A stretch of DNA of 63,031 bases from a virus: positions 1 through 63,031 of IMG/VR virus record IMGVR_UViG_3300031695_000005; one strand, 5' to 3'. Positions 19,630 to 62,216 of this stretch are shown one piece after another (position 1 is the first letter of the stretch; each line of letters begins with the position of its first letter). Position numbers and translations under genes: made by a program. The notes beneath the pieces are model-generated. The model was not told where the DNA came from. It did no database searches and worked only from the letters and a program-made list of their open reading frames with translations.

Positions 19630-19658
19630 AATCTATATATATTTAATTTTAATTGTTG

Positions 19659-19732
19659 TGGAGAATAACGGAGTCGAACCGTTGACCTCCTGCGTGCAAG
19701 GCAGGCGCTCTAGCCAGCTGAGCTAATCCCCC
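19659..19732 (-). tRNA. tRNA-Ala (UGC)
   Basis: The minus strand starts GGGGGAT, has the D-arm TAGCTCAGCTGGCTAGAGC, anticodon loop C-TTGCA-C with TGC, and T-arm ACGGTTCGACTCCGT. The acceptor pairs GGGGGAT with ATTCTCC (two G-T wobbles), discriminator A. The 3' CCA is not encoded. Reads GCA and related Ala codons. Confidence 0.93.
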
Positions 19733-19747
19733 TTTTTAATAATATTG

Positions 19748-19820
19748 AGCGAAAGACGGGATTCGAACCCGCGACCCTCAGCTTGGTAAACTGATGCTCT
19801 ACCGACTGAGCTACTTTCGC
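19748..19820 (-). tRNA. tRNA-Gly with anticodon ACC
   Basis: Acceptor GCGAAAG pairs with CTTTCGC and the discriminator is U73, as in bacterial tRNA-Gly. D-arm TAGCTCAGTCGGTAGAGC and T-arm GCGGGTTCGAATCCCGT are normal. The anticodon stem TCAGT/GCTGA closes the loop TTACCAA, so bases 34-36 are ACC. That would read GGU with an unmodified or inosine A34, which is unusual for bacterial Gly tRNAs (normally GCC, TCC or CCC). Confidence 0.88.
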
Positions 19821-19824
19821 ATTG

Positions 19825-20168
19825 TGGAGGTGGTGGGATTCGAACCCACGTCCAATAAGTATCCTTAAAAACATTTCTTACAGCTTAGGATAAGTTTCTT
19901 TAAACTTCCAAAATCAGATTTTGATGTTCCATGGCCACAAAATCATAAAGGCTCTATTGGTTGTAATGTTTAACGGGTACATTACTAAACCACATCTTGC
20001 TTCCTTTTACATCTCGATTATTTACAAGCATACTAATAATATGATGAGCACTGCTTACCTACTTAGGCAGCCATTGCTAACTCAGCGTTGTCGGCTAAGA
20101 TTGATGTAGGTCATCACCCAGTACTGTAGTTTTTATCTCAATCTAATTGTCAAAAACCGGTCACCCCC
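19825..20168 (-). ncRNA. ssrA: tmRNA (ssrA)
   Basis: The 344-nt RNA has a complete tRNA-like end. It starts GGGGGTGACCGGTTTTTGACA (the typical tmRNA beginning), and ends with T-arm GTGGGTTCGAATCCCAC and CACCTCCA. GGGGGTG pairs with CACCTCC. The tag reading frame is GCC GAC AAC GCT GAG TTA GCA ATG GCT GCC TAA at 20095-20063, giving ADNAELAMAA, with a hairpin (CTGCCTAAGTAGGTAAGCAG) just after it. tmRNA rescues stalled ribosomes and tags the nascent chain for ClpXP-type proteolysis; the C-terminal Ala-Ala fits. It is 28 bp from the preceding ORF and 4 bp before the tRNA-Gly, so it is processed from a longer transcript. Confidence 0.93.
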
Positions 20169-39160: not shown

Positions 39161-39985
39161 ATGCAAAGGAATAGAAGGTCTATTAAAAAGATTATACAAG
39201 AGCCAAGAGCTATACAGCATAATAGCAATGTTCATCGTAGGGAAATTATAAATAATCCTACTAAACCTGTATCTATACCACCTACTCATATAAACAACCC
39301 TAGGCATGTAATACCGGTACAAAATTCATCTAGTAACAAAATAACATATAATAGTATTCCTAGGAAATTTGAAGGAGAAACTATTTATTTAATTGGAGGT
39401 GGGCCATCTTTAAGAGATTTTAATTTTAATTTATTAAAAGGATCAAAAACTATTGCAATTAATAAAGCAATTCTTTTTTATCCAAATGCTGATGTTTTAT
39501 TTTGGACAGATACAAGATTTTATAATTGGCATAAAAATGAAGTAGATAATTATAAAGGTTTAAAGTTTACACTTAGACCTAGTAGTCAATATACTGAAGA
39601 TATTAATTTATTAAAGAAAGGCAAGCCTCATGGTTTGGAATTAGATGATCAAACACTAGCTCATGGTAATAATAGTGGATATGCTGCAATTAATCTGGCT
39701 TTTCACTTAGGAGCAAGACGTATAATTTTATTAGGATTTGATATGGGTAATCATATGGAGAATAATAAATTAATTACTCACTTCCACGATGGCTATCCTT
39801 CAAAGGCTGCACCTGATCATGTTTATAAAGATAAGTTCTTGCCTGGGTTTTCAGAATTAAAATCAGAACTTAATGATTTTAGTAATTTAAAAGGTTTAGG
39901 AATAACTGTATTAAATGCATCTCCTTATAGTAAATTAAATGTATTTCCTAAAATTACAATAGAGCAAGCTTTAAGCTTTAGATGA
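39161..39985 (+). CDS. DUF115/MptE-like protein, the only plus-strand gene
   Basis: The 274-residue protein starts with NRRSIKKIIQEPRA, nearly the same N-terminus as the 510-residue protein at 1525-3057. IYLIGGGPSLRDFNFNLLKGSKTIAINK and HGNNSGYAAINLAFHLGARRIILLGFDMG cover the DUF115 core. There is no transferase half. It is divergently transcribed from gp44 and convergent with the 39971 gene, overlapping its end by 15 bp. A plus-strand box with ATAAATATAAAAAT precedes it. It is likely part of the phage glycan machinery or a sugar-phosphate-binding protein. Orientation suggests a mobile or late-acquired gene. Confidence 0.75.
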   Translation: MQRNRRSIKKIIQEPRAIQHNSNVHRREIINNPTKPVSIPPTHINNPRHVIPVQNSSSNKITYNSIPRKFEGETIYLIGGGPSLRDFNFNLLKGSKTIAINKAILFYPNADVLFWTDTRFYNWHKNEVDNYKGLKFTLRPSSQYTEDINLLKKGKPHGLELDDQTLAHGNNSGYAAINLAFHLGARRIILLGFDMGNHMENNKLITHFHDGYPSKAAPDHVYKDKFLPGFSELKSELNDFSNLKGLGITVLNASPYSKLNVFPKITIEQALSFR

Positions 39986-55811: not shown

Positions 55812-57098
55812 TTATGCTGATATATCATCAGTCTCAGTTAATCTCATATGTTCATAATCAATATCAAATCTACATCGAGATCCTTTACCTTGACCGTCTC
55901 TAATTTTTAAAACCTTTAACCAATATTCTCGCTCAGCGTGCATTACAGAATCCTGTATCAATGCATACATTACATCAGCGGTATGCGCAAGACCTGCAGA
56001 TTCTGCAATATTTTCCATTCTTACTTCAGTTGCATCCCATGCACCACGATTAATTTGCGTTGCCGATATAACTAACATATCCCTTTTAACTGCTAATGCT
56101 CTAAGATCTTCTGCTATTTGTTTAATCTTCATATAAGTATTCTCAGTATTAGGATTTCTATAATTTGCAAGAATATTAATATAATCTACAACTAATACAT
56201 TTACTTTATGATCTTGGTTTTCTTCTAAATCTTTTAAGTATGCTTCTATATCTGGTATAGTACCTTGTGATGTTGGATATTCTTTAACAAATAATTTTCC
56301 TGGTGGTAATAAACCTCGAGATACTTTTTCTAATCTTCTTTTCATGTAATCTCTATTACCTGAATTTTTATCATATTCACTCATTGGAATATGTAAAAGA
56401 TTAGATCCTATTCTTTTTAATACTTTTTGAGCTGACATCTCTGCTGTAATGAAAACTACATTATGACCCATCCTTACAAAATTAGCTGCATCGTTTGCTA
56501 ACCATATTGATTTACCAATATTTTGTTCTCCTGCATAAACAATTAATGATTTAGTATCATAACCTCCGCCGGATACTCTGTCAACAAAACTCCACCCTGT
56601 TTCTATTTTCTTTGATGTTCTCTGTACGTGAGATTCAGGATTAAAGAAATCTAAACCTACATCAGTATCAAAATTAATTGAACCATCAGTAGATATCATT
56701 CCTATTGCACGTTGTACTACATCCTCTACGTTTTCTGGAGAAACATCTTGAGTTTTTACATATTCAATTGTTCTTACTAATTGTTTATCAAAATGTTTCC
56801 ACTTAACCCATGCTTCACCAGTTCTTTTTAACCAATCCTGATCATACTCCTTAATATTAATATCATAAACAGAATTTACAATATCACCAGAAATTTCATT
56901 AGGATCATCTTTAACTAAAGCATTCATCTGTTGTTTAGATGGGCTTTCACCAAACTTTAAATAAAAATCTTTTGATAATTTTGCAATTTGATCTAAATCT
57001 CTATTTGCAAAAAAACCATTACTTGTTCCTTTTAAGTAATGTGGTTTTGTTAAAAAATAGTTAAAGAAAATCTTTTCGTGGTCTATGCTTGATTTCAT
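55812..57098 (-). CDS. gp41: Replicative DNA helicase, gp41-like (DnaB family)
   Basis: The 428-residue protein has an N-terminal helical domain and a RecA-like helicase core with GEQNIGKS (Walker A near residue 195), VVFITAEMSAQKV, VNVLVVDYINIL (Walker B) and VISATQINRGAW. It lies with gp45, gp43 and UvsX in the replication block. It unwinds duplex DNA at the fork. A TTATATTT box precedes it (57104-57116). Confidence 0.93.
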   Translation of the reverse strand: MKSSIDHEKIFFNYFLTKPHYLKGTSNGFFANRDLDQIAKLSKDFYLKFGESPSKQQMNALVKDDPNEISGDIVNSVYDINIKEYDQDWLKRTGEAWVKWKHFDKQLVRTIEYVKTQDVSPENVEDVVQRAIGMISTDGSINFDTDVGLDFFNPESHVQRTSKKIETGWSFVDRVSGGGYDTKSLIVYAGEQNIGKSIWLANDAANFVRMGHNVVFITAEMSAQKVLKRIGSNLLHIPMSEYDKNSGNRDYMKRRLEKVSRGLLPPGKLFVKEYPTSQGTIPDIEAYLKDLEENQDHKVNVLVVDYINILANYRNPNTENTYMKIKQIAEDLRALAVKRDMLVISATQINRGAWDATEVRMENIAESAGLAHTADVMYALIQDSVMHAEREYWLKVLKIRDGQGKGSRCRFDIDYEHMRLTETDDISA

Positions 57099-57136: not shown

Positions 57137-57436
57137 TTATTCGTAAGGATTATAAATTACTTCATATGTAGTGTATGCAGAATTTTGTAATGAAATATTA
57201 ACAATCTTATGTTTAAGTAAGGTAGTTAAAATAGTATTACATTGTTCTTTTGTAAGGCTCCATCTTTTTGCCATAGAGATATCTGTAAATTTAATCTCCT
57301 TTGCAACTTTAGCACAGTAATCACGTATTAGTTCAAAAATAACATCTTCGGCATCAGGGTATGAATGCAATGTGGTGTGATTTCCTAATACGTACTTTAC
57401 CTTAAGCTTTGCCGTATTAAGAGTTTTCGGTAACAT
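57137..57436 (-). CDS. Small winged-helix-like protein
   Basis: The 99-residue protein ends SLTKEQCNTILTTLLKHKIVNISLQNSAYTTYEVIYNPYE, which has the look of a winged-helix: helix-turn-helix followed by a beta wing. No catalytic motif. It overlaps the end of uvsX by 20 bp, and lies before gp41, so it might help recombination or helicase loading. Function unknown. Confidence 0.55.
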   Translation of the reverse strand: MLPKTLNTAKLKVKYVLGNHTTLHSYPDAEDVIFELIRDYCAKVAKEIKFTDISMAKRWSLTKEQCNTILTTLLKHKIVNISLQNSAYTTYEVIYNPYE

Positions 57437-58625
57437 CGTCTACTGTTGTTTCAGTAATTATATCGGATAATTCCTCTTGCTCTAATTCATCACCATAAGT
57501 AAATTTTGCTGCTACTGTTGGTTCTAGTAATTTTAATACATCATCAGTTAAAACTTGAGGTGTATATAATTGATTAAGATCAACTGCATCATTTAAATGT
57601 TTTACACAAATTTTACGTGCGGTTGGTGACGGTTGAAAATATACAGTAATATCTTTACCTTCTTTTTTAAATTTATGGATTCTACATTCTGCTTTACCTG
57701 GATCTGGTAATTTACCAAATGCACCTTCAGTAATAAATCTACCTCTTTCGATACCACAGATATCCCAGCCAATGTATTCTTCTAAACCTACATAAGGATT
57801 CATACCTTTATTAAAAGATATATGAAACTTAATTGGTGTTGGTTTTGCAAAACGATTCTTATTTGGTTTAGCCGTTACAATAATTCCAGTCTGTTCGATA
57901 CCTTCTTTAAGTTTTGCTTTACCTAAGAAAAGAATAATTGATGCTGCATATTCTGGACCAGTTCCACCACCACCTACTTGTCTTGAAAATAGATCTTGTG
58001 TTTGGTATGTATGATTTGTGAATAAGAAAGGTATTTTACATATACCAAATTGAGTCATAATGATTCTAAATGTAGACTTAAGTAATTTAGCTCTTGTCAT
58101 ATCAGCTTTACTACTTCCTGTTTTTGCATCATCGATTTCTTTTTGAGTTGCAAGATTACCTGCAGAATCTAAGACTACCATAATTTTTGGTAATTTTATA
58201 CCTTTTTTCTTTTGTTCGATTAATACATCAGTAATAGCAGTTACTGAACTTCTAAATTCCTGAACAGTATTACATGGTTCATATCGGAATGTTTTAGGAT
58301 CAATTCCAAATTTTTCTACTAATGATTTATCTACAGCATTTTCAGAATCATAAAATACAATACTGTATCCTTGCTTTTGTGCTTGTTTAATTGCATTAAG
58401 AATAAGATAAGTTTTACCAGTACCTGATGGTCCTGCTAATGCAACTGCTCTGTTATTTGGATAACCACCAAATAAAGATCCAGTTAAACATGCATTAAGA
58501 TGAAAATTCCCAGTTGGAATATAATGATCAATTTCTGAAATTGTTGATTTATCTAAAGTTTCTCCGTATTCGGATATCTTTGACATTTCCTTGTTTAAAT
58601 CTGCGAATGAAAATTCTTTTGCCAT
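57417..58625 (-). CDS. uvsX: RecA-like recombinase, UvsX
   Basis: The 402-residue protein has Walker A GPSGTGKT (65-72), VFYDSENAVDKSLVEKFG, a KIMVVLDSAGNLA Walker B and the L2-like region around FLFTNHTYQTQDLFSRQVGGGGTGPEYAASIIL. T4 UvsX is 391 residues. It mediates strand invasion in recombination-dependent replication. A leader element shared with the clamp gene is at 58635-58649. Confidence 0.94.
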   Translation of the reverse strand: MAKEFSFADLNKEMSKISEYGETLDKSTISEIDHYIPTGNFHLNACLTGSLFGGYPNNRAVALAGPSGTGKTYLILNAIKQAQKQGYSIVFYDSENAVDKSLVEKFGIDPKTFRYEPCNTVQEFRSSVTAITDVLIEQKKKGIKLPKIMVVLDSAGNLATQKEIDDAKTGSSKADMTRAKLLKSTFRIIMTQFGICKIPFLFTNHTYQTQDLFSRQVGGGGTGPEYAASIILFLGKAKLKEGIEQTGIIVTAKPNKNRFAKPTPIKFHISFNKGMNPYVGLEEYIGWDICGIERGRFITEGAFGKLPDPGKAECRIHKFKKEGKDITVYFQPSPTARKICVKHLNDAVDLNQLYTPQVLTDDVLKLLEPTVAAKFTYGDELEQEELSDIITETTVDDVTENS

Positions 58626-58671: not shown

Positions 58672-59796
58672 TTAGAACAAGCTTGTAGTATAAATTAAGT
58701 TTCGATTAAATCCTTTAAATCCCATTGCTGTTACTACACGATTTATTGGATCTAATATTGTTTTTTCAAATTGTCTATCATGATCGATCTGTGGTGCAAA
58801 CTCATAAGGATATTCTCCTGGAGCAAATGCAAATACCTCACATGATTTATCAGTTGAAAAATACATTTTACATTTTTCACCATTTCCTAAAGGTTGATAT
58901 TTACCTTTAGATGTAGAATTATTTAATAAGTAATTATGATAACCTGCAGATCTTACGCCGATTGGACATCTTGATGCAAATTCAAAAGTTTCATAATCAT
59001 TAACAATATACTTTTGATAATTATTTACTTTTCTTGAGAAACATATTTGATCTACATTTGCTAATTTAAATTGCCTTTTAATATCTTTAAGTAATGAGGC
59101 AAAATCTTTCATATCTAATTTTTCAACAGAAAAGATATATGTTAATAAATCTTTTAGTTTTTCTCTAGCAAATATTGGAGTTGACGATTGAATAATTTCA
59201 AATCCTTTAGAACTAATTTTAGATAGATCTTCATAATGAATATCTGGATCTTTCCATACAATATTTTGCATGTACTTTTTCTTTGCTAACCATATTGCAT
59301 TTTTAGCAATACTTTCTAATTCAAAAGATAAAAAGTTTTCAGAATTATTATCGTCTGCATATCTTTGGAGAATCTTTTCTAAATAACCATTTACTCTAAC
59401 TTTATATAACTTTAGAATAAATTCCTTATCATCTCCATCAAAACCTTCTGATTTTGCTATGACTTCATCAAACTTAACATAAACTGAATCTGTATCAATA
59501 TAAATACCTACTGGGTTTTCTATTCTACCGGTTACAGTAATTCCCATTTCTTTATGAGCAGCAAGATCTTTATGCCAATATTGACTGAAGTATCTATTTA
59601 ACAATTCCTCGGTATAAAGAATTGCATCTTTACCTTGTAATGTTATTGTTTCTGCAATGTCTATATTAAAGAAATAGAAATAAGGATTACCAAATGCACC
59701 ATAGATAGAGTTAAGCATTAACTTAACAGCTTGTTCATAATTGTAAAACTTACTAGCTTCTTTGTTTATTTGTTGTAACTCAGTTAGTTCATTCAT
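58672..59796 (-). CDS. gp43: DNA polymerase, C-terminal part only (gp43B)
   Basis: This 374-residue protein contains polymerase motif B (KLMLNSIYGAFGNPY, 25-39) and motif C (YIDTDSVYV with DTDS at 101-104) of family B polymerases, followed by the thumb (SKGFEIIQSSTPIFAREKL). It starts only about 24 residues before motif B, so the exonuclease domain, motif A (DxxSLYP) and most of the palm are absent. No N-terminal partner is found elsewhere in this window. It must be a split polymerase (as in some Aeromonas T4-like phages) or the other part lies outside. Both ends are clean: it overlaps the 59796 stop region by one base. Confidence 0.88.
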   Translation of the reverse strand: MNELTELQQINKEASKFYNYEQAVKLMLNSIYGAFGNPYFYFFNIDIAETITLQGKDAILYTEELLNRYFSQYWHKDLAAHKEMGITVTGRIENPVGIYIDTDSVYVKFDEVIAKSEGFDGDDKEFILKLYKVRVNGYLEKILQRYADDNNSENFLSFELESIAKNAIWLAKKKYMQNIVWKDPDIHYEDLSKISSKGFEIIQSSTPIFAREKLKDLLTYIFSVEKLDMKDFASLLKDIKRQFKLANVDQICFSRKVNNYQKYIVNDYETFEFASRCPIGVRSAGYHNYLLNNSTSKGKYQPLGNGEKCKMYFSTDKSCEVFAFAPGEYPYEFAPQIDHDRQFEKTILDPINRVVTAMGFKGFNRNLIYTTSLF

Positions 59797-60047
59797 TATA
59801 CTAAGTTCAGAAGTTCTAGTGAAATAACTGAATATTCTTCATCAATTACTAAATTACTCATTTCACCAAAGACAAGAACTGTTTTTGAAGTATCGAATAA
59901 ACCTGTAACAGGATTAAAATATTCAACTGCAAATTGAACTAAAGATTGTTGATATGTAACAGTAGTTGCTATAAATTCTATAGTTTCTGTTCCGTTCTTG
60001 GTTATTACATTTGGCTTTAAGCCAGGTTTTGAGATAAATGTTGCCAT
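59796..60047 (-). CDS. Small protein of unknown function
   Basis: The 83-residue protein has a beta-rich composition (TVTYQQSLVQFAVEYFNPVTGLFDTSKTVLVFG) with no motif that I know. It sits between the clamp and the polymerase half, 49 bp after the clamp terminator, and its stop overlaps the polymerase start by one base, so it might be connected with the polymerase in some way. The box 60057-60070 precedes it by 9 bp. Confidence 0.5.
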   Translation of the reverse strand: MATFISKPGLKPNVITKNGTETIEFIATTVTYQQSLVQFAVEYFNPVTGLFDTSKTVLVFGEMSNLVIDEEYSVISLELLNLV

Positions 60048-60147: not shown

Positions 60148-60897
60148 TTAATCCTCGTCAGTAATTGCAACAGCAACAGTTAAGTGAGTATTTGTATCTA
60201 AAGATCTAAACACAACTTTATTACTACAAACTACAACCTTATAATTTTCTTTATCTAAAAGATTAATATATTTTTTGTAGATTACAACTTTTTCTCCTAC
60301 TGCGTTGTCTCCTTCGTATGAATGCGCTAAAGTAGCATCATATGATGGTCCTTGTACAGCAACACCTTTATCGGTTACAGCTAATGTAAATGTATCTTCA
60401 TCTCTTTCTAGATTAAATAAAGATTTCATTTTATCAACATGAGTTGTAAGGAGGTCAAATTGAAATATACTTCCTTCAACACTAAATGCACGATCTGTTT
60501 CATCTTTACTCATTTCCATAAAAGATAAAGATGGATCTGCACATGCTAAATTGATCTTAAGATCAGAATTCTCAATAGTAAAATCACTTGCCATTAATTC
60601 TCCATCAATCTCAGAATATTTAATCTTTCCTTGAATATCACCATTGAAATGAGATAATGCATCTATAACTTTTGTACCATTGTAAAAACTTACCTTTACT
60701 GAATCTGTAATATCTGTATCAAAAATATCAGATGTTGGTGTTGATACAAGTTTTACTGCGTCCCTCTCAGGAAAGTATACAGATGAAACCGTTCCTTCTT
60801 GACCAATCTTCATAAATATGAATTTATCAATTGGTAAGAGTTTTTTGACGAAGGTACTTAATTCGTAACCATCGATCTTTTTAATTTTTGCTTCCAT
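60148..60897 (-). CDS. gp45: Sliding clamp, gp45-like
   Basis: The 249-residue protein resembles T4 gp45 (228 residues): KFIFMKIGQEGTVSSVYFPERDAVKL, SFYNGTKVIDALSHFNGDIQGKI, and the C-terminal FTLAVTDKGVAVQGPSYDATLAHSYEG and VVIYKKYINLLDKENYKVVVCSNKVVFRS. It forms a ring around DNA, tethering polymerase, and also activates late transcription with gp55. It has its own promoter element and terminator. Confidence 0.92.
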   Translation of the reverse strand: MEAKIKKIDGYELSTFVKKLLPIDKFIFMKIGQEGTVSSVYFPERDAVKLVSTPTSDIFDTDITDSVKVSFYNGTKVIDALSHFNGDIQGKIKYSEIDGELMASDFTIENSDLKINLACADPSLSFMEMSKDETDRAFSVEGSIFQFDLLTTHVDKMKSLFNLERDEDTFTLAVTDKGVAVQGPSYDATLAHSYEGDNAVGEKVVIYKKYINLLDKENYKVVVCSNKVVFRSLDTNTHLTVAVAITDED

Positions 60898-60944: not shown

Positions 60945-62216
60945 TTAAAAAGTACCATTAACTTTATACTTTTTCTTTGGTGTTGCGCCAAGTTCTTCAG
61001 TTACTAATATTTTATGAGTGGTATTATCTTGCTTCATGAATTTAAAGTTTGTCATTTTAGCATTACCTTCACAAAACTTCTTAACCTCAACCGCCATATC
61101 CATTGCAGTAGTTGCTGGTACGTTTTGAGCAATATGATTAACTTGCCTTGCATTTTTAATACCAAAGTCTAATGGTAATCCCATAAGATGTAACATTTCT
61201 CTAATATTTAAGTACCTATTTTCTGTTGGGTGTACACCATTAAACATATTTCTACCAATAAGAGCTGAAAAACTTTCATCAAAGAAGTGTGGAGATGCAT
61301 CCCAATAACCCATCCCTTGGCCTGTTTTAAATTTTTGATGTTCTAACATATCACCAAAAGATTTTGTTGATTTTTTATTAGAAAAACCTTGCTTATGATA
61401 TTTCTTATCTAACCACTGTATGCATTCATCCAATAATTCATTCTTTTCTAAATATTGCGCAATTGTACCTTTACCAAATTTCTTAGCAAAGTCAGCATGA
61501 TTTAATCCTTCTTTTTCTAAAACAAATTCATAAGGTTTATAATGATCGGTTACTTTACCTTCAACCATAAACATATCTTGTAAGGTTGCATCTTCTGGTA
61601 CTTCAGCAAGATAATCTATAAGATGTTTCTTTTCTCTAAACTTCCATCCTAGCATAGGTACTGTTGGGGTATTCCAAAAGAAATAAAATGTTCTTATTCT
61701 TCTTTGTGGTATTCCATGCAATTCCGTATTAGTTTTAATTAAAGAAAAACTATAACCATATTTTTCACCGATGGCTTTAAGATTATTAACTACACCTTCT
61801 CCCATTTTAGTAAAAAGCCCTGGAGCATTTTCTCCCCACAATACTTTAGGTTTAACATTCTCTAAAACATATTCTGCTGAATTATACATCCATTGATTTT
61901 GAACTGCATCAGATCCTCTAGATGATGCACTACCACTAGCAGAATTTAATTGTGATAAACCTGCACAAGGGCAAACAGAATTTACAAAATCTACTTGTTC
62001 AAATGTTTTATTAGGAATATCTAATTCTTCATGGTCTATTCTATACATAGGTACGTCAGGCCAATAATCTTCTATATGGCTTTCGTTAGCAGCAAAAGCT
62101 TCATAGCTTAAATGAAATGCTGGTAAATTACCTGTTGCTTTATTACAACCTATTGCACTACCTCCAATTAATGGAATCATAGTACCCCATTTTAATTCTT
62201 CTTTTTCTTTATTCAT
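60945..62216 (-). CDS. DNA cytosine-C5 methyltransferase
   Basis: The 423-residue protein contains the C5-MTase core: CPCAGLSQ (catalytic Cys84 in motif IV), GENAPG (motif VI ENV-type), PQRRIRTFYF (motif VIII QxRxR), YLNIREMLHLMGLP (motif IX) and QNVPATTA (motif X, QxxNxVP). The glycine-rich motif I is unusual (LIGGSAIG). Long insert between VIII and IX (about 200 residues) is the target recognition region. It methylates cytosine in a site I cannot predict, either to protect phage DNA or for regulation. It is 5 bp downstream of the epimerase. Confidence 0.88.
   Translation of the reverse strand: MNKEKEELKWGTMIPLIGGSAIGCNKATGNLPAFHLSYEAFAANESHIEDYWPDVPMYRIDHEELDIPNKTFEQVDFVNSVCPCAGLSQLNSASGSASSRGSDAVQNQWMYNSAEYVLENVKPKVLWGENAPGLFTKMGEGVVNNLKAIGEKYGYSFSLIKTNTELHGIPQRRIRTFYFFWNTPTVPMLGWKFREKKHLIDYLAEVPEDATLQDMFMVEGKVTDHYKPYEFVLEKEGLNHADFAKKFGKGTIAQYLEKNELLDECIQWLDKKYHKQGFSNKKSTKSFGDMLEHQKFKTGQGMGYWDASPHFFDESFSALIGRNMFNGVHPTENRYLNIREMLHLMGLPLDFGIKNARQVNHIAQNVPATTAMDMAVEVKKFCEGNAKMTNFKFMKQDNTTHKILVTEELGATPKKKYKVNGTF

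What the first reader, a model, noticed from the sequence alone, without database searches (positions are those of the whole stretch)
58672..59796. DNA polymerase is split: only the C-terminal part is present here
Motif B and C of a family B polymerase are intact but exonuclease, motif A and fingers are missing. The gene starts cleanly with its own ATG right next to a small unknown ORF. Split gp43 genes are known in some T4-like phages (Aeromonas phages), where both parts together work. The breakpoint here is just before motif B, so the active site must be made from two chains.
Basis: partly seen in the sequence, partly recalled or inferred. Interest (0 to 1): 0.72.

Follow-up and report, generated by a model that had tools for sequence, protein, structure and literature searches.

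The report
DNA polymerase made from two genes
This virus of bacteria makes its DNA-copying enzyme as two separate proteins cut at the same spot as a rare split already known from Aeromonas phages, and the cut is shared by a broad group of giant phages, so it is an old, stable design and not a broken gene.

Summary
Confirmed and extended. Window 58672-59796(-) encodes the C-terminal half (374 aa: second fingers helix, motif B, motif C, thumb, C-terminal tail) of a T4/RB69-type family B DNA polymerase. The N-terminal half is not in the window, which is a 63-kb fragment ending 3.2 kb upstream. A contig 99.9% identical over 14.4 kb carries it 15.9 kb further upstream: 471 aa with exonuclease, motif A and the first fingers helix. 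In all 40 other genomes where both halves were recovered, they are separate genes. These include cultured Bacteroidota phages (PAU, MA9V-1/2), Lak megaphages and 413-735-kb phages; pT24 is split too. Every catalytic motif is kept, both halves are under strong purifying selection and they co-vary (r = 0.98). The break is at the tip of the fingers, the same place as in Aeromonas phage 44RR, whose lineage was split independently (AU test p = 5e-22). No intron, intein or homing gene marks this break. In four relatives a second break lies at motif C and carries a split intein. Best reading: two chains assemble without a covalent bond into one polymerase, with a composite active site. Assembly is inferred from Aeromonas split enzymes, not shown here. 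New variant of a known kind.

The parts
58672..59796 (-). C-terminal half of a split family B DNA polymerase (374 aa): second fingers helix, motif B, palm with motif C, thumb, C-terminal tail
   Evidence: dN/dS 0.03-0.08
59725..59796 (-). start of the chain (residues 1-24): far end of the second fingers helix; the break lies just before it, at the fingers tip (between T4 residues ~505 and ~533)
   Evidence: alignment with T4, 44RR and contiguous relatives
59698..59724 (-). motif B, KLMLNSIYG (residues 25-33), dNTP-binding side of the fingers
   Evidence: conserved in 41 of 41 rows
59485..59496 (-). motif C, DTDS (residues 101-104), catalytic aspartates; the site of a split intein in four relatives, uninterrupted here
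59272..59283 (-). KKKY (residues 172-175), conserved KKxY motif
58675..58683 (-). C-terminal tail ending SLF, aligned with the clamp-binding tail of T4 gp43 (role inferred)
59796..60047 (-). 83-aa unknown ORF that overlaps the polymerase start by one base (TAATG); only in the closest relatives, so not part of the split design
60148..60897 (-). 249-aa gene just upstream of the C-half; its homologues sit just upstream of the C-half in basal relatives and in PAU, with a further weak homologue in pT24; position and size suggest the sliding clamp, but identity with gp45 was not confirmed
   Evidence: negative 75, 96
57417..58625 (-). UvsX/RecA-like recombinase directly downstream
55812..57098 (-). 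DnaB/gp41-like replicative helicase in the same replication gene block

Best explanation
The virus encodes its replicative family B DNA polymerase in two genes. Chain 1 (about 470 aa, just off the end of this contig) holds the N-terminal region, the 3'-5' exonuclease, motif A with one catalytic aspartate, and the first fingers helix with its RxxxK dNTP-binding residues. Chain 2 (this ORF) holds the second fingers helix, motif B, motif C with the other catalytic aspartates, the thumb and the C-terminal tail. The chains are proposed to associate without a covalent bond, their two fingers helices pairing as they do in contiguous gp43, and so rebuild one proofreading polymerase whose active site has residues from both. 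Shown: two intact, conserved, co-inherited open reading frames that together supply every motif once, with no intron, intein or homing gene at this break. Inferred: the physical assembly and activity, from the tested split gp43 of Aeromonas phages, which is broken at the same place.
For: C-half identified by Pfam, PDB sequences and PHROGs. Matching N-half on a 99.9%-identical contig and in 38 of 50 records (one of them a weak, sub-threshold match, and one, G044, contiguous); by the match coordinates the others appear to end before the N-half would be reached. All catalytic motifs kept in 41 of 41 paired sets: DIE, DxxSLYP, RxxxK, KxxxNSxYG, DTDS, KKxY. dN/dS 0.03-0.08 (C) and 0.09-0.10 (N). 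N and C distance matrices agree, r = 0.98, Mantel p 0.001. No contiguous polymerase in complete Lak-A2 and MA9V-1. No group I intron at or near the break; no homing endonuclease among the intervening genes. 44RR is broken at the same place, and split 43A and 43B of an Aeromonas phage co-purify and have polymerase activity (PMC2988022, citing Petrov 2010).
Against: No complex was modelled or tested. Single-chain models are of low confidence (mean pLDDT 66 and 49). The window itself lacks the N-half, which is placed by a near-identical overlapping contig. In G043 the gene order is C then N, and in the 636-, 642- and 735-kb phages and Lak the halves are far apart on opposite strands, so a co-translational assembly model cannot hold in general.
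Confidence: 0.9

Rival explanations
1. The ORF is a decaying fragment, or an assembly artefact, of an ordinary contiguous polymerase.
For: Only half of the gene is in the window, and the window is a fragment.
Against: About 78 independent loci show a relative of the same short chain; the N-half is separate in all but the distant outgroup G044; dN/dS is 0.03-0.10; catalytic residues are invariant; no second full polymerase is seen.
Confidence: 0.02
2. The halves are joined covalently, by an undetected split intein or by trans-splicing of RNA, into one full-length polymerase.
For: Relatives do carry a split intein in this same polymerase, at motif C, as Pseudomonas phage MIJ3 does (PMC6892783).
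Against: At the fingers-tip break the N-half ends ..LEQELKNTDKV-stop and the C-half begins MNELTELQQ, with no Hint sequence on either side in any relative examined. Rfam finds no introns there. The halves can be reversed in order or far apart on opposite strands.
Confidence: 0.04
3. Each half works alone: the N-chain as a free exonuclease and the C-chain as an accessory, with replication done by another polymerase.
For: The exonuclease domain lies complete on the N-chain; group 2.2 jumbo phages are reported to carry also a split, minimal Pol III alpha (PMC7824862).
Against: Motifs A, B and C are kept on both chains, which makes sense only if the active site is assembled. The polymerase-core parts of each single-chain model have low confidence, while the thumb is well predicted; shallow alignments weaken this point.
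Confidence: 0.04

Closest known systems
Split gp43 (43A/43B) of Aeromonas phages 44RR and 25 (Petrov, Ratnayaka and Karam 2010)
   Same: T4-type family B polymerase in two genes; break at the same fingers-tip position; N-chain with exonuclease and motif A, C-chain with motifs B and C
   Different: Separate origin: one clade with the present group is rejected, p 5e-22. In 44RR the genes are adjacent, 49 bp apart, and in phage 25 a homing gene and an intron are present (PMC2988022, PMC2993671); here the halves are mostly kilobases to hundreds of kilobases apart, with neither
Sphingomonas (Sphingobacterium) phage PAU gp105/gp110, Chryseobacterium phages MA9V-1/2, Tenacibaculum phage pT24, Prevotella Lak phages
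   Same: Homologous halves, same break, same or related lineage
   Different: Lower identity (about 28-37%) and other intervening genes; annotated as two polymerase ORFs or not at all, with no discussion of a split found in the texts read
PHROG families phrog_2062 (502 positions) and phrog_1918 (382 positions)
   Same: Database clusters that match the N- and C-halves respectively
   Different: Only labelled 'DNA polymerase'; the pairing is not stated
Pseudomonas phage MIJ3 PolB with a split intein and HNH gene (PMC6892783)
   Same: Same kind of break as the second, motif-C break in relatives L002, L006, L076, L077
   Different: The window's own gene has no motif-C intein; its only break is at the fingers tip
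Split PolB3 of Methanobacteriales and Nanoarchaeum equitans (PMC4104785)
   Same: Family B polymerase in two genes
   Different: Archaeal; those splits are explained by inteins; none is seen at the break here

Membership tests
T4/RB69-type family B DNA polymerase | exonuclease motifs, motifs A, B, C and KKxY all present in the gene product(s) | tested here: met
   41 of 41 paired sets carry DIE, DxxSLYP, RxxxK, KxxxNSxYG, DTDS and KKxY, allowing small variants; RB69/T4 gp43 are the best PDB relatives of both halves
T4/RB69-type family B DNA polymerase | DNA synthesis and proofreading activity | not testable with these tools
   needs purified chains
Split gp43 of the Aeromonas phage kind (43A + 43B) | two separate cistrons, broken at the fingers tip before motif B | tested here: met
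   44RR 43A ends and 43B starts at the same aligned place, T4 ~505-533
Split gp43 of the Aeromonas phage kind (43A + 43B) | common descent with the Aeromonas split | tested here: not met
   AU test rejects all split polymerases as one clade, p 5e-22; without 44RR one clade is not rejected, p 0.555
Split gp43 of the Aeromonas phage kind (43A + 43B) | both chains copurify and polymerise together | not testable with these tools
   reported for the Aeromonas pair (PMC2988022); not tested for this group
Fractured gene with split intein | IntN and IntC Hint sequences on the two sides of the break | tested here: not met
   absent at the fingers-tip break; met only at the second, motif-C break of L002, L006, L076, L077
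Group I intron or homing-gene interruption | intron or homing endonuclease at the break | tested here: not met
   no Rfam intron in the window or around the halves; no endonuclease among the intervening G001 genes

The most novel reading that the evidence does not exclude
A two-chain, non-covalent replicase is the ancestral and stable state of a whole lineage of jumbo and huge Bacteroidota phages, including Lak megaphages. The fingers-tip junction has become a true subunit interface, perhaps used to time or control replication because an active site exists only when both chains are made. Some members then broke the second chain again at motif C and rely on protein trans-splicing, giving a three-gene polymerase.
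Probability: 0.35. Interest if true: 0.72.

Novelty: new variant of a known kind. Interest (0 to 1): 0.52.

Why it matters
Split replicative polymerases were known as oddities of a few Aeromonas phages and some archaea. Here the same split is fixed across a diverse group of giant phages, with the two genes free to move far apart. That points to the fingers tip as a place where a family B polymerase can be cut without loss, reached at least twice. It gives a natural two-component polymerase to test for assembly, fidelity and control, and it matters for annotation: half-length polymerase genes in such genomes should not be read as fragments or used alone as markers.

Tried and rejected
Looked for the N-half inside the window by six-frame motif search and PF00136: none. 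Looked for introns by Rfam: none at the break in the window and relatives (the one group I intron found, in L005, lies elsewhere). Considered an intein origin for the fingers-tip break: no Hint remnants on either side. Considered the 83-aa ORF as a lost piece of the polymerase: no Pfam or PHROG match, and only close relatives have it. Tried to confirm the 249-aa neighbour as the sliding clamp: negative by profile against the PDB and against T4 gp45. Single-chain structure prediction gave low-confidence models, so no interface claim rests on them. Four genome-search runs failed on list-size limits.

Full report
What is in the window. The ORF at 58672-59796 on the minus strand is real and exactly as placed. 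It matches only the second part of the family B polymerase profile, positions 143-384 of 453, and residues 553-813 of RB69/T4 gp43. It carries motif B (KLMLNSIYG), motif C (DTDS), KKKY and a C-terminal tail ending SLF, aligned with the clamp-binding end of T4 gp43 (the clamp-binding role is established for T4 and inferred here). A six-frame search of the window found no exonuclease motifs or motif A in a polymerase context, and PF00136 hits only this place. The ORF sits in a replication block: a 249-aa gene and an 83-aa ORF upstream, then downstream UvsX, a gp41-like helicase and an SbcC/gp46-like ATPase.

Where the other half is. The window is a linear 63,031-base virus record that ends 3.2 kb upstream of the ORF. 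A contig found through the protein search (L008, genome handle G001) is 99.9% identical to the window over 14,357 bases and continues further upstream. There, 15.9 kb upstream of the C-half start, lies a 471-aa ORF with DIE, GWN..FD and YNVVD exonuclease motifs, DFASLYPS (motif A) and QRKEYKK (first fingers helix), ending ..LEQELKNTDKV. Between them are ribonucleotide reductase genes, sugar-modification genes, a cytosine methyltransferase, the 249-aa gene and the 83-aa ORF. None matches a homing endonuclease.

How general it is. A protein search gave 78 loci in viral contigs, and a phage-record search gave closest relatives among huge phages. Searched as whole records, all 50 tested match the polymerase profile and 38 match the exonuclease profile of the N-half, one of them weakly. 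From the match coordinates, the IMG/VR records without one end within about 17 kb upstream of the C-half. The only contiguous polymerase among these 50 is the distant G044 (862-aa frame). The split occurs also in cultured phages: PAU gp105/gp110, MA9V-1 and MA9V-2 and pT24 gp165/gp168. The PAU host is a Sphingobacterium (PMC3738902). In basal relatives (L155, L067) the halves are separated only by the reductase genes and the 249-aa gene. In G043 the order is reversed, C then N with a 13-base gap. In Lak-A2 and the 636-, 642- and 735-kb phages the halves are on opposite strands and far apart.

Why it is functional. All 41 paired sets keep every catalytic motif. Both halves are under strong purifying selection: dN/dS 0.03-0.08 for C and 0.09-0.10 for N. 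Their distance matrices agree at r = 0.98 over 38 genomes, which shows co-inheritance but does not by itself prove contact.

Where exactly the break is. In an alignment with T4, 44RR and contiguous relatives, the N-half ends and the C-half begins between T4 residues of about 505 and 533. That is the tip of the fingers: the first fingers helix with RxxxK stays on the N-chain, the second with KxxxNSxYG on the C-chain. An active site built from these chains would need motif A and RxxxK from one and motifs B and C from the other.

Relation to known splits. Aeromonas phage 44RR has 43A and 43B, adjacent genes, broken at the same place. For that group, split chains are reported to co-purify with polymerase activity (PMC2988022). 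On the tree, 44RR groups with T4, away from the present set, and the AU test rejects one clade of all split polymerases (p 5e-22). Without 44RR, one clade is not rejected (p 0.555). Long branches limit certainty near the base, where contiguous Flavobacterium phage MaF61 falls; one split followed by a re-fusion, or MaF61 as the sister group, cannot be told apart.

A second break in some relatives. In L002 (462 kb), L006 (Lak-A2), L076 and L077 the C-half is itself broken between DTD and S of motif C. The upstream ORF ends with an intein N-part, the downstream ORF starts with an intein C-part ending HN before the serine, and L002 and L077 have a further ORF between them, nuclease-like by Pfam in L002 (below that family's cut-off). 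Pfam Intein_splicing matches these places. A split intein in PolB is already reported for phage MIJ3 (PMC6892783). The window's gene does not have this break.

Structure. AlphaFold models of single chains had mean pLDDT 66 (C) and 49 (N). In the C-half the thumb is confident while the fingers and palm are not. This fits halves that need each other, but the alignments were shallow, so it is weak evidence. Foldseek finds RB69 gp43 first for both. Complexes could not be modelled here.

Literature. In the texts read, the split is not discussed for MA9V-1, Lak phages or pT24; Jug phages are reported to have polymerase genes often split by endonuclease sequences (PMC12363816). The library is open-access only, so an earlier mention elsewhere cannot be excluded.

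Verdict. Observation confirmed, interpretation supported. It is a new variant of a known kind: the Aeromonas-type split, independently evolved, old, clade-wide and mostly unlinked.

Noticed in passing
L002 5416-8816; L077 7975-10816; L076 9124-10867; L006 7917-10059: Split intein at motif C (DTD/S) of the polymerase C-half, with a separate ORF between the intein parts in L002 and L077; the polymerase would then come from three genes.
   Followed up: partly
L148 11886-14694 (genome G043, 413 kb): The two polymerase halves are adjacent but in reversed order, C-half first, then N-half after a 13-base gap.
   Followed up: partly
60148-60897: 249-aa gene with homologues just upstream of the polymerase C-half in PAU and, more weakly, pT24; a candidate sliding clamp, but no profile match to gp45 was obtained.
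   Followed up: partly
19658-20168: tmRNA gene with tag peptide DNAELAMAA next to tRNA-Gly and tRNA-Ala genes in the phage genome.
   Followed up: no
39161-39985: The one long plus-strand gene among otherwise minus-strand genes; it matches a PHROG annotated as alpha-2,3-sialyltransferase.
   Followed up: no
60945-62216: C-5 cytosine DNA methyltransferase gene lying between the polymerase halves in this species.
   Followed up: no
L005 16667-16898: Group I intron in the 735-kb phage about 7 kb from its polymerase C-half.
   Followed up: no
L181 42342-43991: Tenacibaculum phage PTm1 ribonucleotide reductase gene annotated with an intein splicing domain.
   Followed up: no
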